DNA of 64,000 nucleotides from contig NZ_JAGQBW010000004.1 of assembly GCF_024345835.1 (NCBI RefSeq), positions 1 to 64,000 of the forward strand, read 5' to 3'. The DNA is from Synechococcus sp. HJ21-Hayes (GTDB taxonomy: Bacteria > Cyanobacteriota > Cyanobacteriia > PCC-6307 > Cyanobiaceae). Numbering within the stretch: position 1 is the stretch's first letter; the number at the start of each line of letters is the position of its first letter. The notes under the pieces are model-generated. The model was not told where the DNA came from. It made no database searches and was given only the letters and a program-made list of their open reading frames with translations. Shown piece by piece: positions 2,979 to 31,441 of the stretch. A program made the position numbers and the translations under genes.

Positions 2979-4150
2979 CACAACCGGCGGGCCTGGAGGG
3001 CCGCCAGCAGGGCTTTGGGGAAATCGAGCACATCCGGCAGATCCGCACAGGGCTCCACAGGCGCGGCATGGGGATCGGTCAGCCACTGGCGCAGCACGGC
3101 CGCCAGCCCGGGGGCATGGCCGGCGGGGAAGCAACGGATCGGCTGGCCGAGGGCCAGGAGATCCCGGGCACAGCCCACCCGATGGCTGAGCAGGGCCTGG
3201 CAGCCGAACGCCAGGGCCTCATGCACCACCAACCCCCAGGTTTCGCTGTGGCGGGAGGGCAACACCAGGGCATCGGCCATGGCATAGGCCCGGCCGATCT
3301 CGCCCTGGTTGAGAAATCCCAGCGGATGGAAGTGATCGCCCAGCAGGGCGGAGAGGCGGCGGTTCCATTCGGACTCCAGGGGCCCACTGCCCACGCTGAT
3401 CAGATGCAGCGTCCGGCGTTCCTCCAGAGGCAGGAGCGCCAGGGCCACGGCAATCAGCAGCACATCTTTCTCCTCCGCCAACCGGCCGGCGTAGAGGAGC
3501 ACCGGCGCCTGGTCAGGGATGCCGATGCGCTGGCGCTGGGCCGCCGCCTGGGGCTGCCACTGCCGGCGCTGCGCCTCGAGCCAGGTGGTGTCTGGGGCAT
3601 AGCTGGCCAGGCAGATCCGCTCCGGGGGAACACAACGCACCTCCAGGTGGCGACGGCCATGGCCGGAGATGGGGCACACCAGGGCACTGCGGCGGTAGAT
3701 CCAGCGCAGGCCGAGATCCCGCAACAGCGCCAAGCCAGGTGTGCGCAACCGCACCGCATCGGTGGCTTCCGTGCGCAGCAGCAGCGGAATGCCCAGGCGC
3801 GGCAGGAGCCCCGCCAGCCCGCCCACCAGCCAGGGCGCATGGTTGAACAGCAGCACGGCATCGGGGCGGGAGCGGTGCACCCAGCGGAGCACCGCCGGCA
3901 GCAACCGCAGGCCCTGTAAGCCCTCGATCGCCGCCAGGCCGCCTTCTGTGAGGAAGGCGCTGGCATAGCCCTCCAGCAGGGGCTGATCCCAGCAGAGGGG
4001 CTGGCCGAAGCCCGGGTCGGGCTGCTGACCAGCGGGGCTGAAATTCTGGCGGCAGAGGTAGAGCACCTCAAGGGAGGTGTGGGCCGCCAACCAGCGGAAC
4101 TGGGGGGCCACGTATTGCACGGGATGGGTATGGATGGCCAGCAGCCTCAC
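2978..4150 (-). CDS. GT4-type glycosyltransferase
   Basis: This is a 390-residue GT-B fold glycosyltransferase. The N-terminal domain opens with a beta strand leading to HTHPVQYVAPQFRWL. The C-terminal half carries the nucleotide-sugar binding pattern of GT4 enzymes: an AGRLAEEKD segment, then SETWGLVVHEAL near residue 300 with the ExxxxxxxE spacing. It is predicted to add a sugar to the lipid-linked repeat unit in the cytoplasm. The GTG start at 4150 overlaps the TGA of the upstream gene (GTGA). It is a paralogue of that neighbour (compare ATHPVQYFVPVFRGLAA there), so the pair probably arose by duplication and may add two successive similar sugars. Donor and acceptor are unknown. Confidence 0.85.
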   Translation of the reverse strand: MRLLAIHTHPVQYVAPQFRWLAAHTSLEVLYLCRQNFSPAGQQPDPGFGQPLCWDQPLLEGYASAFLTEGGLAAIEGLQGLRLLPAVLRWVHRSRPDAVLLFNHAPWLVGGLAGLLPRLGIPLLLRTEATDAVRLRTPGLALLRDLGLRWIYRRSALVCPISGHGRRHLEVRCVPPERICLASYAPDTTWLEAQRRQWQPQAAAQRQRIGIPDQAPVLLYAGRLAEEKDVLLIAVALALLPLEERRTLHLISVGSGPLESEWNRRLSALLGDHFHPLGFLNQGEIGRAYAMADALVLPSRHSETWGLVVHEALAFGCQALLSHRVGCARDLLALGQPIRCFPAGHAPGLAAVLRQWLTDPHAAPVEPCADLPDVLDFPKALLAALQARRL

Positions 4151-5277
4151 CCGAGCACCTCCTGCACGGCCGCCACCAGCTGCTGCGGCGATGGGGTGGG
4201 GTGGGCACGGCGGGCCCAGGGCCACTGCTGCAGGGCCAGGCGGATGGCCCGGGCCAGCGCACGCGACTGGCCGGCAGGGAACACCCAGCCCTGGGTGCTG
4301 GAGAGCACCAGATCATGGCGCGAGCTAACCCGATCGCTCACGACCACACGCACCCCCTGGCTGAGGGCTTCATTCACCACCAGGCCCCACACCTCCCCCT
4401 GCACCGAAGGAAGCAGCAGCAGATCGATCTGGCGATAAAAGGCAGGCAGATCGCTCTGATTCACGAACCCGTGGAACGCGAGCTGGGGGAGCAGGGGCTC
4501 GAGCGCCGCGCGGCAGGCCGCCAGCAAAGGCCCATCCCCGGCTGCAGCGAAGCTGAGCCGGTCCCGCTCCTCGGCGCTCAGGTGATCCAGGGCGCGGGCC
4601 ACGATCAGGGGATCCTTCACAGGCGTGAACTTGCCCACGTAGCCCAGGCGTAACCGGTCCGGCTGCGGCTGGTGCGGCTCCTCCTGAGCCCAGGGCGGAA
4701 TCACGGCCTGATCCACGGCATAGGGCACCGTGCGCAGCCGAGCCGGCGGCACGCCGAGCCGCAGGAAATGCCGGTACGACTCGGCACCGATGGGCAGGAT
4801 CCAGCGGCAGCAGCGGTAGTAGCGGCGGAGCACCGCATCCCGCAGCCAGTTCTTGATGGCACTGCGGCTGTAGGCCTCATCGGAGGTGTCGGCGCGCAGC
4901 AGGATCGGCACACGAGCCAGCGCCAGCAGCAGGGAAGCGGTGGCGATGAAGCTTGGGCTGTAGGCGTAGATGAGCACGGCATCTGGCCGCCAGAGCAGCA
5001 GCCGCAGCGCCGCCCAACCGCCGGCGAGCACACCACGCCAGCCGGAGAGGGCCTTGAGGGGCCAACCGGTGAGGGCGGTGCGCTCGTAACCGCTGGTGAG
5101 ATCGCAGTCCCAGGCGAAGGCCACGCCGAAATCGGGGTCGTAACTTGGGGATTCAACGCCGTGCAGGCAACCCACAAACACCCGACAGCGCCAACCCGGT
5201 TTTGCGGCAAGCCCTCGGAACACCGGCACGAAATACTGCACGGGATGGGTAGCCAGGATCGCGAGCCGGCGCGCCAT
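4147..5277 (-). CDS. GT4-type glycosyltransferase (paralogue of the adjacent gene)
   Basis: This 376-residue GT-B glycosyltransferase starts with MARRLAILATHPVQYF and has the GT4 C-terminal features: KFTPVKDP (a phosphate-contacting lysine region) and GEVWGLVVNEALSQG near residue 300. The ATG at 5277 overlaps the stop of the upstream SGNH hydrolase (ATGA), and its own stop overlaps the GTG of the next transferase. Motif order and the matching N-terminus show it is a duplicate of its downstream neighbour. It is expected to be a cytoplasmic, membrane-associated enzyme building the repeat unit; substrate unknown. Confidence 0.85.
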   Translation of the reverse strand: MARRLAILATHPVQYFVPVFRGLAAKPGWRCRVFVGCLHGVESPSYDPDFGVAFAWDCDLTSGYERTALTGWPLKALSGWRGVLAGGWAALRLLLWRPDAVLIYAYSPSFIATASLLLALARVPILLRADTSDEAYSRSAIKNWLRDAVLRRYYRCCRWILPIGAESYRHFLRLGVPPARLRTVPYAVDQAVIPPWAQEEPHQPQPDRLRLGYVGKFTPVKDPLIVARALDHLSAEERDRLSFAAAGDGPLLAACRAALEPLLPQLAFHGFVNQSDLPAFYRQIDLLLLPSVQGEVWGLVVNEALSQGVRVVVSDRVSSRHDLVLSSTQGWVFPAGQSRALARAIRLALQQWPWARRAHPTPSPQQLVAAVQEVLG

Positions 5278-6398
5278 CACAACCCGCAGAGCCAAGGGAT
5301 TAGGGCCGTCGCGGCCAGGCGATGGCCGCTGGCATTCCAATGGCCCTCGCCGGGGGCCTGGCCGGTGAAGCCATGAAGGGTGAGGCCCCGCTGATCGGCC
5401 TGTTGCTGCAGCAGCGGGGCCAGGGGCAGATAGGGGATGCCCCGGGCCGCCAGGAGCGCCTGCAGCCGCCGCTCCGACGCGAAGGGATCGGGGGGGCGCT
5501 GGGAGGGCCGAGGCCAGAGCTGATCGGGGCTGCTGGCGCTGGCCACCACCAACATGGCCCCGGTGGCCGCAACCTCCCGGTTCAGGTTGGCGATCAGGGC
5601 ATCGGTGATGGCCCAGGCCTGCGCTGAAGCTGGCGGGGTGGGCGCGGGTGGCTGGCCGGCGAGGGCACGGCGAGGGGGGGCCGCTCGGTTGGCCATCCGG
5701 TTCTTCCCCTCATTGAGCAGCTGCAGCACACGGCTGTGGTTGATCAGCCCCTCCAGCAGCTGGCCGGGAAGAGAGGTGCGCCAGCGGTAACCAGGGGTGT
5801 TGCGGAAGCTGTTGTCCACCACCAGATGGCTGTCGGCTGTTAGGCGCACCACAGGGCGATCCGGCCTGGAACGGGGCTCATTGTCCTGGAGGTCGTTGCC
5901 GGGATACAGCAACAGCAGCACGAGATCGGGGTGGTAGGCGCGGGCCAGATGGCGCCAGGTGAGCCACTCCTGAGCCGTGCCATAGCCACCAACGCCGAAG
6001 TTGAGCACCTCAACACCATCGGGATGACCGGCCTTGAGCCGGCACTGGCGCGCCGCCGAGAGCTGCGTCTGCAGCTGGCCCGCCAGGGTGTTGGGCTCAT
6101 TGAGCTGCAGGGCCTCCGTGAAGGAATCGCCCAGCACCGCCAGACGCAGCCGGCCGGGCTGGGGCTCCAGGCTGGTGGGAGCACCGCGGAACCCGGCGGC
6201 ATTGATCCGCACCTGGCCATGCCCCTCGCGGCTCCAGAGGCCCGCCGCCCCGGGGCGCAATCCGTAGCCGCGCTCCGGATCGAGGCTGTAGAAGGCGGGG
6301 TGCTGCAGGCCTGCGAGGCGCAGCATCAGTTCGGCCGCCCCCACCGACACCACCAGTCCCACACTCAGGGCCGCCAGATTGTCGAGCCAGCGCTTCAT
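5277..6398 (-). CDS. Membrane-anchored SGNH/GDSL-type hydrolase or acetyltransferase-like protein
   Basis: The product is 373 residues with one N-terminal membrane segment (about residues 11-30). It then shows the SGNH signature: GDSFTEA at 90-96 (nucleophile Ser), GVGGYG (Gly block), YPGNDLQDNE (Asn block) and GHWNASGH near residue 355 (catalytic His; the usual Asp three residues before it is Asn/Ala here). Such proteins remove or transfer acyl groups on cell-surface glycans, and the N-terminal anchor would place the domain outside the membrane. The ATG at 6398 overlaps the TGA of the upstream gene (ATGA); another ATG at 6407 is possible. The role in glycan modification is inferred from context. 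Confidence 0.75.
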   Translation of the reverse strand: MKRWLDNLAALSVGLVVSVGAAELMLRLAGLQHPAFYSLDPERGYGLRPGAAGLWSREGHGQVRINAAGFRGAPTSLEPQPGRLRLAVLGDSFTEALQLNEPNTLAGQLQTQLSAARQCRLKAGHPDGVEVLNFGVGGYGTAQEWLTWRHLARAYHPDLVLLLLYPGNDLQDNEPRSRPDRPVVRLTADSHLVVDNSFRNTPGYRWRTSLPGQLLEGLINHSRVLQLLNEGKNRMANRAAPPRRALAGQPPAPTPPASAQAWAITDALIANLNREVAATGAMLVVASASSPDQLWPRPSQRPPDPFASERRLQALLAARGIPYLPLAPLLQQQADQRGLTLHGFTGQAPGEGHWNASGHRLAATALIPWLCGL

Positions 6399-7657
6399 GG
6401 CCGCCATGCTGCCGGAACGCAGAGCAGCAGCAGGGAGGTGGCCAGGAGGCGCAGATCGAGCAGCAGCGAGTGGTTGCGCAGGTAATACAGGTCGCGAGCC
6501 AGCTCCCAGGCCAGGGTGTCCGGCTCCTCGGGCGGCGGGCCGATGATGCGGCCCCAGCCCGTCATTCCCGGGCGCATCCACTGGCGCAGCTCGGCACCGG
6601 GGAAGCGGGCCTCCAGCCGGGCCAGGGCCTCAAGGCTGAGGGGGCGCGGCCCCACCAGGCTCATCTCGCCGCGCCATACATTGAGCAACTGCGGCAGGGC
6701 GCTGAAGCGGCCGGATCCGGCCAGGCGAATGCGGGAAAACGGACGGCCATCGCGGCCGCCACAGGCATCGCGGTGCAGCCGCGGCCGCAGAGCGAAAGCC
6801 AGCGGTGCGAGCAGCGCCAGCAGCAGGCCACTGCCAAACAGATCGCCGAGGCGCTTGAGGCGGGCCGCCGGGCCGCTGCGGGCATGGCTGAAGGCCTCCA
6901 CCCGCTCGGCCCAGGCCGTGGCCAGCAGTTCCGGAGGCAGGCGCTGCAGGAAGGTTTCCGCCCAACCGGCCAGGGAGAGCAGGCGCAGGCCCTGCTGCTG
7001 CCAGGCCAGCAGGGTGGCGCGATCGGCGGCGCTGGGCTGGTGCTGCAGGCCGAGGGCCACCCCATCGAGGGCCAGCCAGGCGGGCAGGGCCTCGGGCAGG
7101 GGCGGCATCGCCTGGGAGGCACGCCACTCGATGCCGCAGGGGATGGCGCACGCACCCACATCGATGGCCTGGGAGAGTGCGGCGCGCTCCTCAGGAGCGG
7201 CGATCAGCAGCCACTGCTGCTGCGGCCGCCAGAGGTGGGCCGTGCTTTGGCCCAGGCCCAGCAGCAGGTTGGTGCCCAACCCAAGGGCCAGCCCCGGCAG
7301 CAGAAAGGACCGGCTCATCGTGGCCTCGAGCTGCTGCCCTCGCAGAAGGGTGCTGGCAGCCGCCAGGGCGAACACCAGGGCAGCGGCCGCCAGGCAATTG
7401 CGCAGCTGGCGAGCCAGATCAAGCTGGTGGCGCGCCAGGGCCGTGTAGGTGCCGAGGAGGTAGTGGATCAGCAGCCAGGCCAGGATCAGGCCGAGGGGGC
7501 CCCGGCTCAGCTGGGGCCAGGCCCCGAACTGCCAGCCATACACAGCGCACCAGCTCAGGCCCAGCAGCAGGCCATCGCTGCAGGCGGCACGCAGAACCGG
7601 GGGGAAGCGGGTGGCAGCAGCCAAGGCAGCACCCGGGCCGGGCGCGGAACTACTCAT
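6395..7657 (-). CDS. Degenerate polyprenyl-phosphate glycosyl-1-phosphate transferase homologue, catalytic dyad lost
   Basis: This 420-residue protein is built like WbaP/WcaJ enzymes, with four N-terminal membrane segments, a cytoplasmic middle domain, then a bacterial sugar transferase domain starting at RLKRLGDL (about 266-273). The C-terminal landmarks EMSLVGPRP (331-339), RPGMTGW and DLYYLRN are present. The invariant Asp-Glu of the DELPQL motif is replaced by Ser-Ala (SALPQL, 319-324). The segment before it is about 26 residues shorter than in the intact paralogue at 7718-9097, so the KLRSM/KFRSM region is missing. I infer it cannot form the phosphosugar intermediate and is either decaying or a partner or regulatory subunit. 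The reading frame itself is intact. Start chosen at the first ATG of the domain, 7657, 60 bp from the divergent paralogue. Confidence 0.8.
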   Translation of the reverse strand: MSSSAPGPGAALAAATRFPPVLRAACSDGLLLGLSWCAVYGWQFGAWPQLSRGPLGLILAWLLIHYLLGTYTALARHQLDLARQLRNCLAAAALVFALAAASTLLRGQQLEATMSRSFLLPGLALGLGTNLLLGLGQSTAHLWRPQQQWLLIAAPEERAALSQAIDVGACAIPCGIEWRASQAMPPLPEALPAWLALDGVALGLQHQPSAADRATLLAWQQQGLRLLSLAGWAETFLQRLPPELLATAWAERVEAFSHARSGPAARLKRLGDLFGSGLLLALLAPLAFALRPRLHRDACGGRDGRPFSRIRLAGSGRFSALPQLLNVWRGEMSLVGPRPLSLEALARLEARFPGAELRQWMRPGMTGWGRIIGPPPEEPDTLAWELARDLYYLRNHSLLLDLRLLATSLLLLCVPAAWRP

Positions 7658-7717
7658 GACTATGGCGCCGAGTACATCGGAGAATGCTGCGAGTGGAGCA
7701 GGGGGCTGGATCGGGCG

Positions 7718-9097
7718 ATGTGGTGGCGATCCCCCTGGCTTAGGCGCCGTGGGCTGCTGATCGGCCTCGCGGGCTTCGATCTGCTCACGGTGGTGGCTGC
7801 CTACAACATCTTTTATCAGGTCCGATTCGGCGCCTGGCCAGGGCTCAGCAATGCGGTGCTGGGGTTGATCGGCCTGTGGCTGGCTGGCTCCTATCTGATC
7901 GGCCGCTATTCCCGCCCGCAGCGGCGCCGGGGGCTGGCCCCTGCCCTGCTGAGCAGCGCACTGGTGGCGTTGCTGGTGCTGGGGGTGGTGGCCGGTGGCC
8001 TGAGCTGGGGCCTGGATTTGGACGATCCCCGCACACTGCGCAGCTTCGCGCTGCCGATGGTGGCGGCCAGCGCGCTGGTCTCGACCCTGGCCCAGGCCTG
8101 GGCCCAGGCGGTGCTCACGCGGCCGCAGCACTGGGTGCTGATCGGCAGCGACGCGGAGCTGGCGGTGGTGGCCGCTGAAATCGCCCGCGATGGCCTCGGC
8201 CAGCAGCTGCAGCTCACCCTGGTGCCGAGCGGTGAAACCGACAGGCACAACCTCAGCGCCCTTGCCTGCGCCAGCAGCGGCATCGCCGTGAGCGAGCAGG
8301 CTGAACTGGATGAGGTGCTGCTGCAACGGCTGCTGGCCCTGCGGGGCAGCGGCACCAGGCTGGTGAGCCTGCTGAACTGGGCGGAGCAGGTGCTGCAACG
8401 GGTGCCTCCGGAGCTGTTCAGCAGCCGCTGGCTGGTGCATGCCGAAGGCTTTGAACTGCAGCCGGAGCGGTTCGGCTGGCGCCTGAAACGGCTAGGCGAT
8501 GTGCTGGTGGCCGGCCTGCTGCTGCTGGCCGCACTGCCGCTGCTCGCCCTGGCGGCCCTGCTGGTGCGGCTGGAGGATGGCGGGCCGGTGTTCTACGGCC
8601 AGGTGCGCAGCGGCCTGTATGGCGACACAATGCGCATCCACAAGCTGCGCAGCATGCGGGTGGATGCGGAGGCACAGGGCATCCGCTGGGCCAGCGCCGG
8701 CGATGTGCGCGTCACACGCGTGGGCCTGTGGCTACGGAAGCTGCGGATCGATGAACTGCCGCAGCTGCTGAGCGTGCTGCGGGGCGACATGAGCCTGATC
8801 GGCCCCCGGCCAGAACGGCCGGAACTGGAGGAAGAGCTGGAGCAGGCGATCCCGCACTACCGCGTGCGCCACTGGATCCGCCCAGGCCTGAGCGGCTGGG
8901 CACAGGTGTGCCACCCCTATGGCGCCAGCGTGGCCGACAGCCGCCGCAAACTCAGCTACGACCTCTACTACCTGCGCAACGCCAGCCTGCCCCTGGATCT
9001 GTTGATCCTGTTCAAGACCATGCGGCTCGTGCTCGCTGGCCAGGGCGCTGAACCGGAAGCCCTTTGCGCCAGGCCAGGAACATCGCAAGGCGACTGA
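7718..9097 (+). CDS. Polyprenyl-phosphate glycosyl-1-phosphate transferase (bacterial sugar transferase)
   Basis: The 459-residue product transfers a sugar-1-phosphate from a nucleotide sugar to undecaprenyl phosphate, the first step of repeat-unit assembly, at the cytoplasmic membrane face. It has four N-terminal membrane segments, a middle nucleotide-binding-like domain, a re-entrant helix after KRLGDVLVAG (257-266), GPVFYGQ (289-295), KLRSM (309-313), the catalytic DELPQL (345-350) and DMSLIGPRP (357-365). All residues expected for the family are present, unlike the divergent neighbour. It is the only rightward gene in the first 10 kb, and its promoter must lie in the 60 bp shared with that neighbour. 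The C-terminal tail after LVLAGQ is likely disordered. Confidence 0.88.
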   Translation: MWWRSPWLRRRGLLIGLAGFDLLTVVAAYNIFYQVRFGAWPGLSNAVLGLIGLWLAGSYLIGRYSRPQRRRGLAPALLSSALVALLVLGVVAGGLSWGLDLDDPRTLRSFALPMVAASALVSTLAQAWAQAVLTRPQHWVLIGSDAELAVVAAEIARDGLGQQLQLTLVPSGETDRHNLSALACASSGIAVSEQAELDEVLLQRLLALRGSGTRLVSLLNWAEQVLQRVPPELFSSRWLVHAEGFELQPERFGWRLKRLGDVLVAGLLLLAALPLLALAALLVRLEDGGPVFYGQVRSGLYGDTMRIHKLRSMRVDAEAQGIRWASAGDVRVTRVGLWLRKLRIDELPQLLSVLRGDMSLIGPRPERPELEEELEQAIPHYRVRHWIRPGLSGWAQVCHPYGASVADSRRKLSYDLYYLRNASLPLDLLILFKTMRLVLAGQGAEPEALCARPGTSQGD

Positions 9098-9389: not shown

Positions 9390-10512
9390 TCATCCCGGGA
9401 TGTCATGCGCCCGAGCAGCCAGGCCCTCGGTGATCGACCAGAAGCCGTCGAGCCGCAGGGCGTTCATCGCCAGGCTGCGGAGCGTGGCCAGGATCTGTAC
9501 ACCGTTGGTCTCGCAGTAGCGGTGCGCATCCTCACGGAGTTGCGTATCGCGGGGCCAATGCCAGGAGTTCTCGATGCTCCAGCGGTCTCTCACATGCTGG
9601 AGCAAGGGTGTGGCTGTGGTCCTGAGACTCGTGACGTAGTAACGGGTTTCATCAATGCGCTTGCCATGCCGGGTGCCCTTGCAATGCACCGCCAGGATCG
9701 TGGCGCTGCCGGGCCAGTTCTCAGTGACCCACTCTGGTGCGGGCATCCCCCGCAGAGACCATTTCAGGTCACGGCAACGCTTGCGCTCGCGATGGGTGAT
9801 CTCAAACACGGCCTTGCGGCCATAAGTCAGCCGATCACGAATGATCTGAAACCCCTTGCGGCGGCTGTGTTTCACCGCGATCAGGAAGTCGGCGCCACGC
9901 TGCTCGAGGTAGAGGGAAAAGGGCGGTTGGCATGCAGCGCATCCGCCTGCACCAGCAGGCCACTGAGCTCAACCCGATCGAGAAGCTCGCGCAAAGCCTG
10001 GATCTCGCTGCCGCTGTCGGTGGCGTAGGTGTTCTGGGCGATCGCCACGCCGAGGCTGTTGGAGTACAGGCTCACCTGTGCGATGTAGACGCAGTCGGCC
10101 GGAGGCCATAACGCGCTGCTCCAGAGGCGGTTTCAGCGATGGATCCCCGCAGGGTCTTGCCATCGCACACCAGGGTGTCGACCACTTCAGGCACGCTTGG
10201 CTGAGCTGTGATCCATTGCTGCAACAGGGATTCGAACCCTTCCACGTCAAGCTGGCTCAGCAGCCAGCGGAACGTCGAGTCCGACGGTGATTTGGCGATG
10301 TGGGTACCGAGGAGCGCGTTGAGGGTCTTGCGATGACGCTTAGCGAAACGCTCCATCCCAAGCAGTGAGCCCTGACCGCTGAGGATCGCCACCAGCAGCA
10401 TCCACCACTGCGGAAAGCGAACCCCACGGCGCATGCGGCAGTCCGGCAGGGCCTTGAGGAAGCTGATTAGGTCAGTGGCTGCAGCAGGACTCTGGATCGG
10501 CGGCGTGGGCAA
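9390..10512 (-). pseudogene. ISAs1-family transposase, frameshifted
   Basis: Three consecutive minus-strand reading segments in different frames together resemble one ISAs1 transposase. The first runs from MPTPPIQSPAAATDL through FLKALPDCR, GVRFPQWWMLLVAILSG and VCDGKTLRGS. The second covers SLYSNSLGVAIAQ, ATDSGSEIQALRELL and QADALHANRPF. The third covers KGFQIIRDRL, RYYVTSL, RDRWSIENSWHWPRD and RSLAMNALR. The frame breaks lie near 10100 and near 9920. The Asp of DGKTLRGS, Asp of QADALH and Glu of SIENSWHW are the likely catalytic triad and all survive, so decay is recent. The element should be immobile unless helped by an intact copy elsewhere. Confidence 0.85.
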
Positions 10513-14350: not shown

Positions 14351-15340
14351 CTACTGCTTGGCGTTGACTGCGGCCAGGGATGCGGTGAAGGGCACGGCAA
14401 CGCATTGATCGAGCCAGACTCCTACCAGCAGCTCTACGCCAGCACCCACCATCACTGCTGGCCAGCCTCCCCAGAGCAGGGTGACGGCCAAAGCAGTCGT
14501 GGCGGCGACATAGAGGTTGGAGACCTGCGAATGGCTCCAGCCGGCCTGGTGCAGGCGCTGGTACAGGTGCAGGCGGTGGGCCTGGAACACGGGCTGGCCG
14601 GCCAGCAGACGGCGGGGCACGCAGAGGCCGGCATCCGCCAGCAAGGGGGTGGCCAGCAGCAGCATCCCCAGGGCATCCGGCCAGGTGGGGGCTTGCAACA
14701 CCACACCGGCAAACACTGCGCCCAGGAAAGTGCTGCCCACATCACCCATGAACACCTTGGCGGGGCTCCAATTCCAGAGCAGGAATCCGAGCAGCGCACC
14801 CACCAGCGCCCAGAGGGGCCAGAGGGCCGTGAGCTTGATGGCTGTTGCGCTGATGGCAACAGCCATGCAGCCGGCCACCAGGCCATCCAGCCCGTCCATG
14901 AAATTGGTGAAGTTGATCACCGCCGTAATGGCAATCAGCAACAACGGCATCGCGAGCCAGGGCCGTGGCAAGGGGCAGAGCAGGATCATCGCCAGGGCCG
15001 TTGTCAGCTGCACTCCATAACGCCAGCTGGCGGGGAGGTTGTGGCGGTCGTCAAGCACACCAATAAGCGCCAGAGGCAGGGCGATCAGCGGCAAAGCCAC
15101 CACCGAAACGGCTGCGTGCTGGGCCAAGCCTGTCGACAAGAACTGCAGCCCGCTGGCAACAGCTGCCACCAGCACGAAGGCCATGCCGCCGCCACGGGGG
15201 GTGGGCTTGTGGTGGGAGCTGCGGGCGTTGGGCTGATCGAGCAGGCGGAGACGCAGTTGGGGGATCAGGGCGCGCAGCACAAGCCAACTGCAGAGAGCAG
15301 CGAGCGTTGCCGTTGGCCAGGGAGATGCAGGTATGGACAT
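14351..15340 (-). CDS. WecA/MraY-family polyprenyl-phosphate HexNAc-1-phosphate transferase
   Basis: The 329-residue membrane protein has about ten hydrophobic segments and the family's cytoplasmic motifs: NARSSHHKPTPRGGG (38-52), DDRH (97-100), NFTNFMDGLDG (143-153), FMGDVGS (197-203) and HRLHLYQR near 245. The aspartates of DDRH and MDG and the HRLHLYQR loop are the metal and UDP-sugar binding sites. The enzyme moves HexNAc-1-phosphate from UDP onto undecaprenyl phosphate and so starts a repeat unit. Its placement beside the FlaA1/CapD dehydratase matches known WbpL/WbpM or WbcO-type pairs that start O-antigens with QuiNAc or FucNAc. MraY itself (peptidoglycan) is usually longer and encoded with cell-wall genes, so that reading is less likely. 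Confidence 0.88.
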   Translation of the reverse strand: MSIPASPWPTATLAALCSWLVLRALIPQLRLRLLDQPNARSSHHKPTPRGGGMAFVLVAAVASGLQFLSTGLAQHAAVSVVALPLIALPLALIGVLDDRHNLPASWRYGVQLTTALAMILLCPLPRPWLAMPLLLIAITAVINFTNFMDGLDGLVAGCMAVAISATAIKLTALWPLWALVGALLGFLLWNWSPAKVFMGDVGSTFLGAVFAGVVLQAPTWPDALGMLLLATPLLADAGLCVPRRLLAGQPVFQAHRLHLYQRLHQAGWSHSQVSNLYVAATTALAVTLLWGGWPAVMVGAGVELLVGVWLDQCVAVPFTASLAAVNAKQ

Positions 15341-15363: not shown

Positions 15364-16542
15364 TCAGCTATGCATCCCGCCGTGGTCGGAACGTAATGAT
15401 GCAACTTCTTTATTGATGAGCTTGATCTGTGCAGCAATGACATGATTCTCATCATAAAGCCGCAAGGCCCTTTCTCTGCCTGCTTTTCCCAGGCGTGTGC
15501 CCCAGCCAGGGTTGAGCAACATTCTTTCAACGCCGGCTGCCAATTCACCAGGTGATCGCACGGGCACAAGCAATCCCGTTTCCTCCGGCACAACCTCTTC
15601 ACGGGCTCCACGAATGTTCGTGGCAACCACTGGCTTGGCCATCATCATTGCTTCGATGATGGTGCGTGGCATCCCCTCTCTCCACGAAGGAAGACAAAAC
15701 AGATCCATAGCTACCAGCAACTGTGGAATATCTTCACGGGATCCCAGAGCCATCAGGCGATGGCCTAGCACATCCTGGGCTGCGGCAAACGCGGCAACCA
15801 CCCCTTGATCATGGTCGCTAGCAAGGCGCTCTCCAATCAGCAATACCCAAAGATGCGTGTGGCGATTGGCGAGCGATGTCATGGCCCCTAAAAACTCACC
15901 AATGCCTTTCTCGCGCACTTGGCGGCCGATTAGGCCAACCACAAAAGCATCTCTGGGTATTCCCAGGGCAAATCTGACGGTTTCGCTGGTGGCGACATTT
16001 TGGGGATTGAAGCGTCTCGGATCGACTCCATTTCCAATCGCAACAACTCGGCTTTCAGGAGCGATTCCCTCATGGATCGCCGTGGCCGCGTCCTCCTTGC
16101 TCTGGCAGAACAGCAGATCGGTGAAGTGGCCGGCGATCCGCTCCAGCTGTACAAAGAATGCACGCTTCCACTGCGGCATATGATCATGGAAATAAAAACC
16201 GTGTGCCGTATAGACGACCAGCGGAATACCAGCAAGTCTGGCGGCCATGCGACCAATCAGCGCTGCGACAGGCGTATGGACATGGAGCACATCAAAGGAT
16301 TGCCGACGAAAAAATCGCGTCAGCTGAATCAGTGAGCGCAACGCGAAAAAGGGATTCATGCTGCGAGCTATTGGGATTGTCTTGATGCAATATCCCTGAG
16401 CGCGCAGCCCGGCGATCTCCTTGCCATCCGAACAGATAGCAACCACCTGCCATCCTTCTTCACGCATCCCGTCGACCAAGGGCAGCAGGAAATTCTTGAG
16501 CGTGAAATCCACAGCACAGAGCTGGCATACCTTTAGGCCCAA
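15364..16542 (-). CDS. GT4-type glycosyltransferase
   Basis: This 392-residue GT-B transferase has the N-terminal strand KVCQLCAVDFTLKNFLLPL, HVHTP at 87-91 and YTAHGFYFHD at 111-120. The C-terminal GT4 features are GLIGRQVREKG (sugar-nucleotide phosphate site) and PSWREGMPRTIIEAM (ExxxxxxxE type). These resemble enzymes such as PglA/WbpH-like transferases acting early on lipid-linked repeat units, consistent with the WecA-like and dehydratase genes that follow. I chose the TTG at 16542 because a GGAG lies six bases upstream and the protein then starts exactly where the family usually does. An ATG at 16578 would overlap the upstream gene by 46 bp. Confidence 0.85.
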   Translation of the reverse strand: MGLKVCQLCAVDFTLKNFLLPLVDGMREEGWQVVAICSDGKEIAGLRAQGYCIKTIPIARSMNPFFALRSLIQLTRFFRRQSFDVLHVHTPVAALIGRMAARLAGIPLVVYTAHGFYFHDHMPQWKRAFFVQLERIAGHFTDLLFCQSKEDAATAIHEGIAPESRVVAIGNGVDPRRFNPQNVATSETVRFALGIPRDAFVVGLIGRQVREKGIGEFLGAMTSLANRHTHLWVLLIGERLASDHDQGVVAAFAAAQDVLGHRLMALGSREDIPQLLVAMDLFCLPSWREGMPRTIIEAMMMAKPVVATNIRGAREEVVPEETGLLVPVRSPGELAAGVERMLLNPGWGTRLGKAGRERALRLYDENHVIAAQIKLINKEVASLRSDHGGMHS

Positions 16543-18482
16543 CGCCTTCTCCACGCCTGGTACATCAAGACATTCCACAGGGCATATTGAACATTTCTAC
16601 CTGAGAGGTGGCGCTGCCACATGGCACGGATCGGTGCTGGATTAAGCAGTCCGTCAGCTGCCAATGCAGCGGGAGAGAGGAGATCTTCCGCCCAGTCACG
16701 CAGGGGGCCTCGCAACCAGTGCTCAATCGGCACACCAAAGCCCTGCTTGGGGCGCTCCACCAGTTCGCGGGGAACATAGCGGTAGAGCAGCTGGCGCAGC
16801 AGCCACTTGCCCTGGCCGTTGCGTACTTTTTGTCTTAACGGCAAGTGCCATGCGAAGTCGATCACCCGCGGATCAAGGAAAGGAACCCGCGTTTCCAGAC
16901 TGGCAGCCATTGCGGCACGGTCGACCTTGACCAGGATGTCGTCAGGCAGATAGGTCAGTGAATCGACCGCCATCATGCGCTCAGCGAAGCTGGGGAGAGC
17001 AGGCCATCGGCCTGGGTCGGCGACCAGCGTCGGTAGCTCGGCGATGCCGCCCAGCGGCAGCGGGCCGCGCCATTGGCTGACCAACTCGCGGTAGAGGCCT
17101 TCCGGGGACGGCGCGGCGATAACTTCGGCAAGTTTGTGCAGCTTGTCGCCAGGATTGCTGACGCGCAGTTGTGTCGGGAGCCAAGGGCCGATCACGTCGA
17201 AGGGGCCGTTCCAAGTAGCGGCAGGCATGGCCGTGAGAGCACCTGAGGCCGCGCGGCGCAGCCACGGCGGTATAGGGCCGATACGGCGCCACAGCGAAGT
17301 CGCCCAGAAGTAGCGGTTGTAGCCACCGAAGAGTTCATCGCCGGCATCGCCTGACAGACAGACGGTGACGTGTTGTTTCGTCAGAGAGCAGACCAGTGCA
17401 GTAGGAATCTGCGAGGAATCGGCAAACGGCTCGTCATAGATGTCGGGCAGACGCGGAATGATCTCTAGTGCCTGCTCTGGGTCAACATGCAATTCAGTGT
17501 GCTCGGTGCCGAGATGACGGGCCACCGCCTTGGCATGCGCGGCTTCATTGTAGTCGTTCTCGGTGAAGCCGATGGTGAAGGTACGCACAGATCGTGTGCT
17601 GCGCGCCTGCATCAGCGCCACCACAATCGACGAATCCAGCCCACCGGAAAGCAGCGCGCCAAGCGGCACGTCGGCGACTATTTGTTCGTCGATCGCTGAG
17701 CCGAGCACCGCTTCGAGCTCGTCGAGCGCAGCGCCGTCACTCAAAGCGTGATGGTTTGCGGCACCCTCCTGAGCGACAGCGGCGAAGCACCACCACGGTT
17801 CGGGATCCCCGAAGCGACCGTCAGCCCCCACTCGCAGCAGGGTGCCCGGAGGCAGCTTGAAGATTCCCCGGTAGATGGAGTATGGGGCCGGCACATAGCC
17901 GTAGCGAAGCATGAGCGCCAGTGCCCCGGGGTCGGTTTCGAAGCGGGCGGCCGGCAACGCGCGCAGCGCCTTCAGCTCCGAGCCAAAGGCAAAGCCGTCG
18001 CCAACGCGGCCGTAGTAGAGCGGCTTCTCGCCGATGCGGTCGCGCGCCAGCGTCAGCGTTTTCTCGGCACGGTCCCAGAGCGCCAGCGCAAACATGCCCC
18101 GGGCGCGGCGCAGGGTCACCTCGAGCCCCCAGGCGACGATGCTGGCGAGGAGAACCTCGGTATCGGAATAGCCACGCCAAACCGGCGCGTGGCCAGCCGC
18201 ATCCAGTTCGCCACGCAGCTCAGCCCAGTTATAGATCTCGCCGTTGTAGACGAGGAGATAGCGTGCGCAGGCCGACTGCATCGGCTGATGACCGGCAGGC
18301 GAAAGGTCGAGAACGGATAGGCGGCGATGGGCGAGCGCCACTCCCGACCCGGCGTCGATCCAGATGTCGCCGTCGTCCGGCCCGCGGTGGAGGATCGAAT
18401 GGGCCATCGCGTGCGCCTGGGTGCGCATCGCATCGGCATCTGTAAGCGGAGCGGCGGCAATGAAGCCGGCTATGCCACACAC
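16533..18482 (-). CDS. asnB: Asparagine synthase-like glutamine amidotransferase
   Basis: The 649-residue protein has an N-terminal class II glutaminase domain, with nucleophile Cys2 after a GTG start and YNGEIYN at 79-85. The C-terminal ATP-pyrophosphatase domain has SGGLDSS at 279-285. Both half-reactions therefore look intact: ammonia from glutamine is passed to a carboxylate activated as an acyl-adenylate. In polysaccharide loci such enzymes amidate uronic or other sugar acids rather than making asparagine, and this is one of four in the window. It sits between two GT4 genes, overlapping the downstream one by 10 bp. The composition is strongly GC-rich with proteobacterial-looking codon choice. 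Free asparagine synthesis remains possible. Confidence 0.88.
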   Translation of the reverse strand: MCGIAGFIAAAPLTDADAMRTQAHAMAHSILHRGPDDGDIWIDAGSGVALAHRRLSVLDLSPAGHQPMQSACARYLLVYNGEIYNWAELRGELDAAGHAPVWRGYSDTEVLLASIVAWGLEVTLRRARGMFALALWDRAEKTLTLARDRIGEKPLYYGRVGDGFAFGSELKALRALPAARFETDPGALALMLRYGYVPAPYSIYRGIFKLPPGTLLRVGADGRFGDPEPWWCFAAVAQEGAANHHALSDGAALDELEAVLGSAIDEQIVADVPLGALLSGGLDSSIVVALMQARSTRSVRTFTIGFTENDYNEAAHAKAVARHLGTEHTELHVDPEQALEIIPRLPDIYDEPFADSSQIPTALVCSLTKQHVTVCLSGDAGDELFGGYNRYFWATSLWRRIGPIPPWLRRAASGALTAMPAATWNGPFDVIGPWLPTQLRVSNPGDKLHKLAEVIAAPSPEGLYRELVSQWRGPLPLGGIAELPTLVADPGRWPALPSFAERMMAVDSLTYLPDDILVKVDRAAMAASLETRVPFLDPRVIDFAWHLPLRQKVRNGQGKWLLRQLLYRYVPRELVERPKQGFGVPIEHWLRGPLRDWAEDLLSPAALAADGLLNPAPIRAMWQRHLSGRNVQYALWNVLMYQAWRRRWA

Positions 18483-28341: not shown

Positions 28342-29481
28342 CTAAGTGCCATGCCGAAAATCGGTCGTCGCGAGCTCCACTGCAATTCGCTTCCCGGCAT
28401 CTCCACGCCCGAACACATAGTCTGGCTCGTAGCGCCGGCGATGAACCTGCGCGAGGATCCTTGCACGGATTTGCTCACAATCGTAGTTAGCGAAGGCGAC
28501 ATTACGGCCGTGCTCACGCCCTTGCTGGCGATCGCCAACGATCACTGAAGGCACTCCGAGATATGCCCCTTCTCGGATGAACGATGACGAGTTGCCAACA
28601 CAACAGATGGAATTACTTAGGACCCGAGCATAATCCTCGGGAGAGAAGTTCTTATAATAATAGATCGGCTCATTCATATTGAGCTCGCGGAAGTGGCGAA
28701 TTCCCTTTGATACATCATCACTGCCAGCATCGACATTGGGCCACATCACAACCTTCTGCAATTCAGGAATTGATTTTAGCGCCTGAAGCGTCTGGCTGAC
28801 CTCATCGAATCCACGACCATAGCTTGTCGTCACTGGGTGCTGGATCATCAACAGGTAGGGCTTAGACCAGTCGATTGGCCTTCCTACCCCAAGGTAGCGA
28901 GACATCTGCTCATTGGATATCGACAAATCTTCGTTCGCCAAGATATCCATCGCCGGGCAGCCATAGTTGAAGACATAGCGATCATCCTCGCCCATCGACA
29001 CCACCCGCTTCGCGGAGAGTTCGGAAGCGACGAAATGGAGGTCGGCCAGTTTCGTGATGGCGTGACGAACCCGATCATCGATATTGCCGCTCACCTCGCC
29101 GCCCTGAAGATGCACGAGCGGAATGTTGAGGTAAGTCGCGGCAATCGCGGTCGCCATGGTTTCAAAGCGATCCGCGACCGTCACCACCATGTCCGGTTGC
29201 AGATCCTCGAAAGCGGACGACAGCTCGACGATGCCGAGACCGGTCGACTTCGCCTGTGTCGCCAGGGTTTCCCCTTCGATCACGTAGTGTATGGAGCGGA
29301 CGGGGGTGAAGCCGTCCGCCTTGATGACGTTGATCGCCTTGCCGAAGCGTTCGAGCAGCGTCGATGCACCGACGATCACCTGCAGCTCCAGGTCCGGATG
29401 CGACTGAACGGCTCGCATCAGGTACTTCACGCGCCCGTAGTTGGCACGGCTGGCTACTACCACGCATATCTTTCTCTTCAT
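28342..29481 (-). CDS. neuC: UDP-N-acetylglucosamine 2-epimerase (hydrolysing), NeuC/LegG-type
   Basis: The 379-residue GT-B-like enzyme begins with VVVASRANYGRVKYLM (the usual TRADY motif here is SRANY) and has VTVADRFETMATAIAA, HLQGGEVSGNIDDRVRHAITKLADLHFVAS and GNSSSFIREGAYLGVPSV. These mark the hydrolysing epimerases that cleave UDP and give free ManNAc (NeuC) or its 2,4-diacetamido analogue (LegG). It overlaps neuB (ATGA at 29481-29478). No bacillosamine-type acetyltransferase lies beside it, so the plain UDP-GlcNAc substrate is the simpler guess, but the substrate cannot be fixed from sequence alone. Confidence 0.87.
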   Translation of the reverse strand: MKRKICVVVASRANYGRVKYLMRAVQSHPDLELQVIVGASTLLERFGKAINVIKADGFTPVRSIHYVIEGETLATQAKSTGLGIVELSSAFEDLQPDMVVTVADRFETMATAIAATYLNIPLVHLQGGEVSGNIDDRVRHAITKLADLHFVASELSAKRVVSMGEDDRYVFNYGCPAMDILANEDLSISNEQMSRYLGVGRPIDWSKPYLLMIQHPVTTSYGRGFDEVSQTLQALKSIPELQKVVMWPNVDAGSDDVSKGIRHFRELNMNEPIYYYKNFSPEDYARVLSNSICCVGNSSSFIREGAYLGVPSVIVGDRQQGREHGRNVAFANYDCEQIRARILAQVHRRRYEPDYVFGRGDAGKRIAVELATTDFRHGT

Positions 29482-30506
29482 TTTAAATCGTCCTGTTGCA
29501 GGAATTCCCAGCGTCGTTTTCCATGGGTCAGCGCTCTGCCGATCACATTATCCAGTTCGCCTACCGCGACCCCGGCATCGGCCGGCTTCTTACCTTCCAG
29601 ATCTTCGAAGATCAGGACATGCCCTGCTGGAAGATCGCGATTGACCGCCAGCGACTTCCCGAACATCCGGCGCAGTTTCCGCTTGCCGTCGTCGAGGGAT
29701 TTGTCTGGCCCCGAAGTGCGCGCCTTCTCCAGAAAACGAATACCATCAACCATGTGGGCGAACTCATCGACGGTCAGCGACGCCTTAGCATCGGGCCCGA
29801 ACATCCGCCTATCGAAGGTCACGTGCGCCTCAACAACAACTGCGCCTAGGGCCACGGCGCCAAGTCCGGCGTAGATGGTCCCCGAATGGTCGGAGAGACC
29901 GACCGGACAGCGATAACGTTCCCGAAAACGGGCGAGCCAGGCAAGTCCCACATCCTCGGCCACCGTCGGGTAGCGCGTCGTGCATTGCAGCACGGCATAC
30001 GGGTTGCCGCGCTCTTGCAGCATCGCCGTCGCGGCATCCAGTTCTTCGAGTGATCCTAGGCCAGTTGACAGGATGACTTCCTTGCCAGTCCTTGCAATGC
30101 GCTCAAGCAGCAAGGGATTCGCCATATCGCCAGAGCCGACTTTGTAGCGATTTACGCCCACCTCTTCGAGCAGATCTACCGCCGCATTCGAAAACGGCGT
30201 CGCAAGAAACTCGACGCCGCGTGCTTCGCATCCTTCCTTAAGCAAGCGCCATTCCGCGAGCGACAGTTCCATGCGCTTCCAGTAATCGTATCGAGTCGCA
30301 TCGACAGGTGAAAAGCGCACCCGGAACGGCTCAAGCGCACTGCTTTCGGCATCGGCGATGTGCACTTGAAATTTGATCGCATCCACTCCGGTGGAGGCGA
30401 CTGCATCGACGAGAGAATGAAGGATACCGAGGCTGCCGTCGTGGGCTTGAGCTATCTCGGCAATGACCAAGGTTCGACCGACGCGTTCGTGTTCGGCAAG
30501 GTTCAC
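29478..30506 (-). CDS. neuB: N-acetylneuraminate synthase family protein (NeuB) with SAF domain
   Basis: The 342-residue product has the NeuB barrel, with IAEIAQAHDGSL, KFQVH, GSGDMANP, LSTGLGS, GLSDHSGTIYAGLGAVALGA and VEAHVTFDRRMFGPDAKASL. A C-terminal SAF (antifreeze-like) domain follows from about residue 270. NeuB condenses phosphoenolpyruvate with ManNAc or an analogue to form a nine-carbon nonulosonic acid. The segment usually written EKHFTLD is EAHVTFD, a form seen in a separate clade of the family, so the acceptor may differ from ManNAc. The GTG at 30506 overlaps the dehydrogenase stop (GTGA). Confidence 0.88.
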   Translation of the reverse strand: MNLAEHERVGRTLVIAEIAQAHDGSLGILHSLVDAVASTGVDAIKFQVHIADAESSALEPFRVRFSPVDATRYDYWKRMELSLAEWRLLKEGCEARGVEFLATPFSNAAVDLLEEVGVNRYKVGSGDMANPLLLERIARTGKEVILSTGLGSLEELDAATAMLQERGNPYAVLQCTTRYPTVAEDVGLAWLARFRERYRCPVGLSDHSGTIYAGLGAVALGAVVVEAHVTFDRRMFGPDAKASLTVDEFAHMVDGIRFLEKARTSGPDKSLDDGKRKLRRMFGKSLAVNRDLPAGHVLIFEDLEGKKPADAGVAVGELDNVIGRALTHGKRRWEFLQQDDLK

Positions 30507-31441
30507 GCTGCGGCTCCTCCCGATAGGGCTGCCTTCAGCTTCTCAGCAATGAACAGTTCAGTTCGCGCCATCGAATCAAAAGTTGCCCCGGCAATATGCG
30601 GCGTTACGATCAGGTTTCGGCTTGGCAAAAGCGCGCGCCATTCGGCAAGATGATTCTCTCCGTTCTCGCCGACAATCACGTCGATTGCCACACCTGCCGG
30701 CCGATTCGAACGCACGGCCGCCAGCAATGCCCGCTCATCGACAAGTTCGCCGCGAGCTGTATTGATGAAGTAGCGCCCCTCCAACGCATCTATCTCATGC
30801 TTGCCGATGACAGGCTCCTGCCCGGCACGATAACTGGCACACAGCAGGACAATCCTGCTCGTTTCGATCAGTTCATGAATATCTGAGGATCGTTGCCACT
30901 CAGGAAGCGACGGGACATTGGCCGAATCAAACCATGTGACGTATGCACCGAATACACTGAAATAGGATGCCAAGCGATAACCAACGCGACCGAGACCGAC
31001 GATCCCGACACGATTGCCATACAACTCGCCTCCCCGGCAGGTATCCCGGTCCCACTTTCCGGCAGCAACATCGTCAAATGCCCGGCGATAATGTCTCAAC
31101 AAGGCAATGACCAAGCCGAAGGTATGTTCAGGCGTGGCGCGGATCGTCTCGAGAAATTTCCTTTCCCCGCGCAAGCTGAGTAAACGAACACCACGAGCGG
31201 CCAGCGCCTGTTCATCGATGTGATTGTGCCCGGTCGTCGGGCTGCACAACCACCGAAGACGGGGTGTCTTTTCAAGGAAGGTGCCGTCGATGCGATGGGC
31301 AAGGCGAACGAATAGCGCATCTAGCGGGGCCAAGAACCCCGCGAGGTCGACGCCGCCAAAGGCTCGCACCTTTCCGAGGCGTCGCAGACACATCAACGCT
31401 TCCGGGGAAAAACCGTCAGGTTCGAGAATGCCTATCTGCAC
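30503..31441 (-). CDS. D-2-hydroxyacid dehydrogenase family protein
   Basis: This 312-residue NAD(P)-dependent dehydrogenase has VGIVGLGRVGYRLASYF (glycine-rich loop), NTARGELVDE (catalytic Arg) and VTPHIAG (catalytic His); the usual Glu lies around VAIDVIVGENGE. It resembles phosphoglycerate or glycerate dehydrogenases but is encoded between neuB and neuA, and it overlaps neuA by 10 bp (GTG at 31441). A role in making or reducing a keto acid used for sugar modification, or in providing a lactyl-type substituent, is possible. The substrate is unknown. It is not a usual member of sialic or legionaminic acid clusters, which makes its placement interesting. Confidence 0.8.
   Translation of the reverse strand: MQIGILEPDGFSPEALMCLRRLGKVRAFGGVDLAGFLAPLDALFVRLAHRIDGTFLEKTPRLRWLCSPTTGHNHIDEQALAARGVRLLSLRGERKFLETIRATPEHTFGLVIALLRHYRRAFDDVAAGKWDRDTCRGGELYGNRVGIVGLGRVGYRLASYFSVFGAYVTWFDSANVPSLPEWQRSSDIHELIETSRIVLLCASYRAGQEPVIGKHEIDALEGRYFINTARGELVDERALLAAVRSNRPAGVAIDVIVGENGENHLAEWRALLPSRNLIVTPHIAGATFDSMARTELFIAEKLKAALSGGAAA

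What the first reader, a model, noticed from the sequence alone, without database searches (positions are those of the whole stretch)
6395..7657. Open, apparently catalytically dead sugar-phosphate transferase beside an intact divergent paralogue
The protein keeps membrane segments and the EMSLVGPRP and DLYYLRN landmarks but has Ser-Ala in place of the Asp-Glu dyad (SALPQL, residues 319-324), and lacks about 26 residues carrying the KLRSM region. The frame is fully open and the neighbour at 7718-9097 has DELPQL. The dyad is the established catalytic pair of monotopic phosphoglycosyl transferases. A retained open frame could mean a subunit, a regulator of the paralogue, or a protein with a new function. 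I am not aware of a described role for dyad-less members.
Basis: partly seen in the sequence, partly recalled or inferred. Interest (0 to 1): 0.65.

Follow-up and report, generated by a model that had tools for sequence, protein, structure and literature searches.

The report
Conserved inactive sugar-phosphate transferase paralogue
In some picocyanobacteria a copy of the enzyme that starts surface-sugar synthesis has lost its catalytic residues but is kept intact by selection, usually near its working twin, so it probably does a non-catalytic job such as supporting or regulating the sugar-building machinery.

Summary
Window 6398-7657 (minus strand) is an open 420-aa paralogue of the divergent catalytic transferase at 7718-9097, with Ser319-Ala320 at the Asp-Glu site and 28 residues missing between the KLRSM strand and the dyad. 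It is not a decaying pseudogene: eleven full-length orthologues from three genera form one clade and none has the dyad (AA 6, SA 3, GA 1, AG 1; 57 of 58 other transferase segments held have DE). dN/dS is 0.045-0.149 in the four pairs tested. Its membrane and DUF domains are better conserved than the working paralogue's, its transferase domain less. All 11 genomes also have the SGNH/GDSL gene (14 of 400 genomes, one a fragment), and in 9 of 11 its stop overlaps the next start. Best reading: a non-catalytic subunit of an exopolysaccharide-initiation module, pairing with the working transferase and/or docking SGNH and a glycosyltransferase; the interaction is inferred. Against an exclusive pair: two genomes share a 96% identical dead protein while their working transferases are 44% identical. 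I found no published description in the library searched.

The parts
6395..7657 (-). Pseudo-transferase gene (P0003, 420 aa plus stop): degenerate large monotopic phosphoglycosyl transferase
   Evidence: Open frame; Pfam PF02397 69.9 bits; 11-member clade; dN/dS 0.137 against the G017 orthologue.
7223..7600 (-). Residues 20-145: predicted four-helix membrane part
   Evidence: Helices in the low-confidence AlphaFold2 model; mean identity 0.60 against 0.45 in the working paralogue, 8 genomes; 0.50 against 0.40 over 11.
6872..7222 (-). Residues 146-262: DUF domain with clade-specific invariant residues (R158, C170, E177, R179, D212, W219, Q220, R260)
   Evidence: identity 0.64 against 0.47 (8 genomes), 0.55 against 0.41 (11 genomes).
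6422..6871 (-). Residues 263-412: degenerate transferase domain; re-entrant helix with DX12P, GPRP Arg kept
   Evidence: model against PglC 8e37 Z 15.9, rmsd 2.7 over 149 residues.
6698..6703 (-). Codons of Ser319-Ala320 at the place of the catalytic Asp-Glu dyad
6704..6727 (-). Residues 311-318: Arg at the PglC-K59 site and the shortened link to the dyad site (28 residues missing)
6395..6398 (-). ATGA: stop of the pseudo-transferase overlaps a start of the SGNH gene
   Evidence: start codon inferred.
5277..6398 (-). SGNH/GDSL protein with N-terminal hydrophobic segment
   Evidence: Pfam PF13472 35.9 bits; present in all 11 genomes that have the pseudo-transferase.
4147..5277 (-). GT4-type glycosyltransferase (HPVQYF); its ATG overlaps the SGNH stop (TGATG)
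   Evidence: Pfam PF00534 80 bits; overlap read; similar gene in all 11 loci, truncated by the contig end in G017 and G126.
7658..7717 (.). 60-bp divergent intergenic region
7718..9097 (+). Working paralogue (P0002, 459 aa plus stop), large monotopic phosphoglycosyl transferase
   Evidence: PF02397 195.7 bits; TIGR03025 300.6 bits, above its cut-off 295.55; all of K59, R88, D93, E94 and the GPRP Arg; AlphaFold2 pLDDT 88.2.
8750..8755 (+). Codons of Asp345-Glu346, the intact dyad of the paralogue

Best explanation
SHOWN: a clade-wide conserved pseudoenzyme of the large monotopic phosphoglycosyl transferases (monoPGTs), maintained by purifying selection within an exopolysaccharide gene module (working transferase, pseudo-transferase, SGNH/GDSL protein, GT4 glycosyltransferase). 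INFERRED: it cannot make the phospho-sugar-enzyme intermediate (no Asp nucleophile, no Glu, no R88, no sugar-site loop) and acts as a non-catalytic membrane subunit of the complex that starts one particular repeat unit. I commit to this mechanism: through its better conserved four-helix membrane part and DUF it pairs with the working monoPGT, as monoPGTs pair with themselves, stabilising or tuning that enzyme and holding the module's own GT4 and SGNH proteins next to the new lipid-linked sugar. Gene overlap keeps its amount matched to SGNH or GT4. The pairing, its sign (activating or restraining) and the docking are not shown.
For: Dyad lost in 11 of 11 clade members, K59 site R or S, R88 kept in 1 of 11, but the GPRP Arg kept in 11, re-entrant DX12P in 8 and the start Asp of that motif in 11: shell kept, chemistry gone. 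One clade, SH-aLRT 100. dN/dS 0.137, 0.045, 0.079 and 0.149 in four pairs; in the three pairs where the working paralogue was comparable it gave 0.199, 0.126 and 0.149. Membrane and DUF parts more conserved than in the paralogue, transferase part less. All 11 genomes have a working large monoPGT; in 6 the two genes are divergent with starts 16-64 bp apart, in 2 about 3.7 kb apart, in 1 on the same strand with SGNH between, in 2 about 61-64 kb apart. SGNH in 11 of 11 such genomes against 2 full-length copies in the other 389 (Fisher 8.5e-20, not corrected for kinship). Stop/start overlap with the next gene in 9 of 11. Precedent: WbaP is a homodimer via membrane bundle and DUF and its DUF senses UMP (PMC10942596); EpsZ needs a partner protein for dimer and activity (PMC12802240).
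Against: G012 and G023 share a dead protein 96% identical (SGNH 89%, GT4 91%) while their working large transferases are 44% identical and lie about 61-64 kb away, which speaks against an exclusive, finely fitted pair. Pairwise-identity correlation over 9 genomes is higher with SGNH (0.88) than with the working paralogue (0.47; 0.83 and 0.71 without the G012-G023 pair); with GT4 it is 0.50, falling to 0.17. G316 and G331 have working transferase and SGNH without any pseudo-transferase, so it is dispensable for such a module. The P0002 model shows no beta-hairpin, but paralogues in genomes without the pseudo-transferase align at the same length, so that lack does not explain its presence. G324 has a further degraded C-terminus.
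Confidence: 0.4

Rival explanations
1. It does not touch the working transferase at all; it is a membrane scaffold, perhaps still binding lipid-linked or nucleotide phosphate through the kept GPRP Arg, that serves the SGNH protein (and GT4), the part of the module with which it always occurs.
For: SGNH in 11 of 11 genomes; stop/start overlap with SGNH in 5 of 11 and with GT4 in 4 of 11; highest identity correlation with SGNH; conserved across a switch of working transferase in G012/G023.
Against: Identity correlations carry shared ancestry and the test has 9 genomes; 6 of 11 loci place the gene divergently next to the working transferase; SGNH occurs without it in G316 and G331; in G012/G023 SGNH lies about 16-19 kb from the dead gene.
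Confidence: 0.25
2. It is a restraining decoy or nucleotide sensor: it forms poor heterodimers with the working transferase, or binds substrate without turnover, and so limits use of the shared undecaprenyl phosphate, in the way ExoX/PsiA restrain ExoY/PssA.
For: [quoted passage not shown] WbaP DUF binds UMP and the enzyme is inhibited by it (PMC10942596 section 9); the DUF here has clade-specific invariant residues.
Against: The sugar-site loop, R88 and the dyad are gone, which argues against tight substrate trapping; ExoX was not compared with this protein; no ligand was tested.
Confidence: 0.15
3. The old fold has gained a new catalytic or ligand-binding function with its own site (for example around C299, R311, G369-R370, E385, R388, or C170/E177/R179 in the DUF).
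For: Positions conserved in 10-11 of 11 pseudo-transferases and rare or absent in 31 working ones, including a charge reversal K to E at 385 (11 of 11 against K in 29 of 31).
Against: Several of these are lost in G324; no known catalytic pattern was recognised; clade-specific residues may equally be an interface.
Confidence: 0.1
4. It is a recently inactivated, decaying gene.
For: Rare (11 of 400 genomes); G324 shows a degraded C-terminus.
Against: Eleven full-length open frames, dN/dS 0.045-0.149, transferase part 0.10 between G000 and G017, one old clade with a long stem.
Confidence: 0.03

Closest known systems
Large monotopic phosphoglycosyl transferases: WbaP, WcaJ, EpsZ; NCBIfam TIGR03025
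   Same: Full-length homology: membrane bundle, DUF, transferase domain with re-entrant helix, GPRP and DLYYLRN landmarks.
   Different: No Asp-Glu dyad, no K59, no R88, shortened sugar-site stretch; TIGR03025 score 124.3 below the cut-off 295.55.
EpsZ with its activator EpsW (Myxococcus xanthus)
   Same: A non-catalytic protein is proposed to make the dimer of a large monoPGT competent (PMC12802240: abstract, sections 8, 9 and 11 read).
   Different: EpsW is a single-domain response regulator, not a dead transferase; contact is not shown here.
ExoX/PsiA and ExoF of rhizobial exopolysaccharide synthesis
   Same: Membrane or auxiliary proteins that act with the initiating transferase ExoY/PssA (PMC3233446, passages).
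   Different: ExoX/PsiA are small proteins; I did not compare their sequences.
Prozymes (dead paralogue activators), e.g. trypanosome AdoMetDC prozyme
   Same: A catalytically dead paralogue of an oligomeric enzyme kept by selection (PMC5201418, abstract).
   Different: Soluble enzyme, proven heterodimer; here unproven and in a membrane enzyme family.

Membership tests
Pfam PF02397 Bac_transf | Score above the gathering cut-off (27 bits) | tested here: met
   69.9 bits, profile positions 90-174 of 179 only.
Catalytic large monoPGT | Asp-Glu catalytic dyad (PglC D93-E94) | tested here: not met
   S319-A320; 0 of 11 clade members have D or E there, 31 of 31 working paralogues aligned do.
Catalytic large monoPGT | Substrate-orienting K59 and R88 of PglC | tested here: not met
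   K59 site R in 10 and S in 1; R88 site R in 1 of 11.
Catalytic large monoPGT | Arg of GPRP (listed as R111 in PMC12802240; 112 by my count on chain 8e37) | tested here: met
   R338, 11 of 11.
Catalytic large monoPGT | Re-entrant helix motif DX12P | tested here: met
   D272...P285 in P0003; 8 of 11 clade members, not G012, G023, G324.
Catalytic large monoPGT | NCBIfam TIGR03025 cut-off 295.55 bits | tested here: not met
   P0003 124.3 bits; P0002 300.6.
Catalytic large monoPGT | WbaP-like fold: membrane bundle + DUF + transferase domain | tested here: inconclusive
   Model pLDDT 65.1, pTM 0.39; transferase part fits PglC Z 15.9, rmsd 2.7, 149 residues; whole chain fits WbaP Z 18.6 but rmsd 20.9.
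Catalytic large monoPGT | Phospho-sugar transfer to polyprenyl phosphate | not testable with these tools
   Needs an assay.
WbaP-type homodimer (neighbour P0002) | Beta-hairpin at the C-terminal end of the DUF | tested here: not met
   No strand between residues 218 and 291 in the P0002 model; as in EpsZ (PMC12802240).
Pseudogene | Broken frame or relaxed selection | tested here: not met
   11 of 11 open; dN/dS 0.045-0.149.
Prozyme-type dead paralogue activator | Heteromer with, and activation of, the working paralogue | not testable with these tools
   No multimer prediction or assay available.

The most novel reading that the evidence does not exclude
A prozyme in polysaccharide initiation: the first membrane phosphoglycosyl transferase known to run as a heteromer of a working and a dead protomer, in which the dead protomer's retooled DUF and surface tie the first committed step to a dedicated SGNH/GT4 modification module.
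Probability: 0.25. Interest if true: 0.75.

Novelty: new variant of a known kind. Interest (0 to 1): 0.5.

Why it matters
MonoPGTs commit shared lipid carrier and nucleotide sugar to a polysaccharide, and how that step is controlled is largely open. A conserved dead monoPGT, tied to a defined gene module, gives a direct handle: a natural separation of the membrane/DUF part from the chemistry. If it activates, restrains or docks, it would be a new mode of control, testable with two genes in E. coli. It also warns that sugar-transferase annotations and counts of polysaccharide pathways in genomes can include proteins with no catalytic dyad.

Tried and rejected
Rejected: simple pseudogene. Rejected: a dyad elsewhere or an alignment slip.

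Led nowhere or weak: the AlphaFold2 model of P0003 with 11 rows is poor, so residue-level surfaces were not interpreted. In the VIA-align second look below WbaP and PglC the best row has Z 6.3 for P0003 and 8.2 for P0002, with DUF-sized matches that I do not read as relationship. Identity correlations cannot be separated from shared ancestry with 9 genomes; the 2 of 11 left out, G017 and G126, have the GT4 gene cut by the contig end. The working G012 paralogue was entered with provisional coordinates; its dN/dS value there came out undefined and is not used, and one search uses the corrected gene. dN/dS was computed by a home-made Nei-Gojobori script for 4 of 55 possible pairs (pairs chosen for closeness), without a significance test; the G304-G384 pair has dS 1.4, near saturation. 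The domain identities are given for 8 and for all 11 genomes because G324, G012 and G023 are outlying. The tree is the quick method; ten rows, five of them pseudo-transferases, have unusual amino-acid make-up, and V_G040 and V_G058 are long branches. G132 (an 80-residue SGNH match at a contig end) was left out of the Fisher count, which treats genomes as independent although the 11 fall in 3 genera. The dyad census counts only held segments that match my motif pattern, and the loci were brought in by similarity, not drawn at random. Gene calls come from a simple G+C-by-codon-position script; start codons are inferred, and genes were not called at all in the low-G+C stretch L111 (G316), which was read by hand.

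Library searches for a described dyad-less monoPGT (listings only) showed none; most subscription papers are not held, and the superfamily survey I recalled (doi 10.1073/pnas.2018289118) is not held, so absence from print is not established.

Full report
What is there. ATG is at 7657 and the stop at 6397-6395; the product P0003 has 420 residues and no stop. It is a full-length paralogue of P0002 (7718-9097, plus strand; 39% identity in the pairwise alignment), which carries KLRSM and DELPQL. The two starts lie 60 bp apart. In its own genome P0003 matches only itself, P0002 and a short transferase on another contig.

Which residues are lost. On a joint alignment of 11 clade members, 31 working transferases and PglC, numbered by PglC: D93 is A in 7, S in 3 and G in 1 against D in 31; E94 is A in 10 and G in 1 against E in 31; K59 is R in 10 and S in 1 against K in 31; R88 is R in 1 of 11 against 31 of 31. 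The Arg of GPRP is kept in all 42. The start Asp of the re-entrant motif is kept in 11 of 11 and the complete DX12P spacing in 8 of 11. The functional meaning of these residues is from PMC12802240 section 8. Between the K59 and D93 sites the working proteins have 35-36 residues; P0003 and five others have 7, G012/G023 12, G324 16, G126/G085 21. By position I equate part of that stretch with the mobile, sugar-site region of PglC described in PMC10942596 section 9; that equation is inference.

A clade, not an accident. A profile search of 400 genomes of the family found 11 with E at most 1e-112; the next best score was 4.7e-56 and belongs to working paralogues. In all genomes held of the three genera concerned the counts are 5 of 25, 4 of 42 and 2 of 2. 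A draw of 388 genomes of the class gave none outside the family: matches below 1e-45 were G000, G020 and working paralogues. The 11 form one side of a branch with SH-aLRT 100 and a stem of 2.16 changes per column. Of 69 distinct motif segments held, 57 have DE, the 11 clade members have AA 6, SA 3, GA 1, AG 1, and one planctomycete protein has EG.

Selection. Nei-Gojobori dN/dS for the pseudo-transferase is 0.137 (G000-G017), 0.045 (G012-G023), 0.079 (G085-G126) and 0.149 (G304-G384). For the working paralogue it is 0.199, undefined, 0.126 and 0.149. Between G000 and G017 the degenerate transferase part gives 0.10 and the working one's 0.132. Mean pairwise identity over 8 genomes is 0.60 (membrane), 0.64 (DUF) and 0.70 (transferase) in the pseudo-transferase, against 0.45, 0.47 and 0.75 in the working paralogue; over all 11 it is 0.50, 0.55, 0.59 against 0.40, 0.41, 0.71. 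Constraint has moved from the catalytic part to the membrane and DUF parts. G324, with a degraded C-terminus, shows that the shift can go further.

Module. In the window the pseudo-transferase is followed by an SGNH/GDSL gene (ATGA overlap) and that by a GT4 gene (TGATG overlap). SGNH was found in 14 of 400 genomes, one of them a contig-end fragment; all 11 genomes with the pseudo-transferase are among them. The remaining full-length two, G316 and G331, have working transferase next to SGNH and no pseudo-transferase. Excluding the fragment, Fisher's test gives 8.5e-20, without correction for kinship. A similar GT4 gene lies in all 11 loci, cut by the contig end in G017 and G126; at 43-84% identity, orthology is not proven for all. 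The pseudo-transferase stop overlaps the next start in 9 of 11: SGNH in G000, G017, G020, G381 and G304, GT4 in G126, G085, G012 and G023; not in G384 and G324. Its place relative to the working transferase: divergent with starts 16-64 bp apart in 6, about 3.7 kb apart in 2, same strand with SGNH between in 1, about 61-64 kb apart in 2.

Who is the partner. Pairwise identities over 9 genomes correlate best with SGNH (0.88), then GT4 (0.50) and the working paralogue (0.47). Without the G012-G023 pair these become 0.83, 0.17 and 0.71. G012 and G023 are a natural test: pseudo-transferase 96%, SGNH 89%, GT4 91% identical, working transferase 44%. This speaks against an exclusive pair with the working transferase, though it does not exclude one with a conserved interface.

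Structure. P0002 models well (pLDDT 88.2, pTM 0.86) and matches WbaP best (Foldseek E 2.5e-13; VIA-align Z 20.4). P0003 models poorly (pLDDT 65.1, pTM 0.39), yet its transferase part fits PglC with Z 15.9, rmsd 2.7 over 149 residues. The P0002 model shows no strand between residues 218 and 291, hence no WbaP-type dimer hairpin; EpsZ, which also lacks it, is thought to need EpsW to dimerise (PMC12802240).

Interpretation. Shown: a conserved, selected, dyad-less member of the large monoPGT family inside a polysaccharide module. Inferred: no transfer activity. Proposed: a non-catalytic subunit that pairs with the working monoPGT and docks module partners (0.40); scaffold for SGNH/GT4 alone (0.25); restraining decoy or sensor (0.15); new catalytic or ligand site (0.10); decay (0.03); the remainder is unspecified. 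Works like: prozymes and EpsW/EpsZ, by analogy only. Member of: the Bac_transf domain family yes; catalytic monoPGTs no.

Novelty. In the open-access library I found no description of a dyad-less monoPGT (listings). A review of pseudoenzymes (PMC10211241) does not contain the word glycosyltransferase in the text held (passages seen). Dead paralogues as such are a known kind; this family is a new variant.

Noticed in passing
L045:5050-6990 (+), Planctomycetota MAG contig JAJDER010000137.1: A 647-aa open frame with a Bac_transf domain (66.3 bits, residues 248-374) that has EG instead of DE and no KLRSM-type motif, followed by about 270 residues with no Pfam match: a separate dyad-less transferase domain.
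   Followed up: partly
window 5277-6398 (-) and its 12 full-length relatives: The SGNH protein keeps GHWN..(G/A)H but has no Asp at the usual block V place before the His in 13 of 13 (E, Q, Y, G, I, L or H instead); the expectation of an Asp is recalled.
   Followed up: partly
L111 and L112 (G316, G331): The same module without the pseudo-transferase: working transferase next to SGNH (GT4 also next to SGNH in G331; no GT4 match at 1e-10 in the 19-kb G316 stretch). A natural comparison for its function.
   Followed up: partly
L076, L077 (at its edge), L078, L081, L082, L085, L086, L111, L112: A NodU-like carbamoyltransferase gene (about 64-80% identity to the L078 copy) lies in 7 of the 11 pseudo-transferase loci held and in G316 and G331, but was not found in the window or in the stretches held of G017, G020 and G324. 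A short membrane-like protein beside it resembles SxtJ by recall only.
   Followed up: partly
window 6470-9097 (+): An 875-aa open frame runs antisense through the pseudo-transferase and in frame into the working transferase; taken as an artefact of high G+C.
   Followed up: no
window 9390-9875 and 10072-10512 (-): Two short transposase fragments (PF01609; PF13808) just after the working transferase, pointing to an insertion remnant in the cluster.
   Followed up: no
window 14351-15340 (-): A WecA/MraY-type Glycos_transf_4 gene (PF00953, 106 bits): the cluster also has an initiating transferase of the polytopic kind.
   Followed up: no
window 28342-31441 (-): Neighbouring genes for a UDP-GlcNAc 2-epimerase, a NeuB-family synthase and a 2-hydroxyacid dehydrogenase: a nonulosonic-acid (sialic-acid-like) pathway in a picocyanobacterial cluster.
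   Followed up: partly
window 16533-18482 and 35783-37588 (-): Two asparagine-synthase-like genes with glutamine amidotransferase domains within the polysaccharide cluster; related genes recur near the module in G381, G304, G085, G324 and G331.
   Followed up: partly
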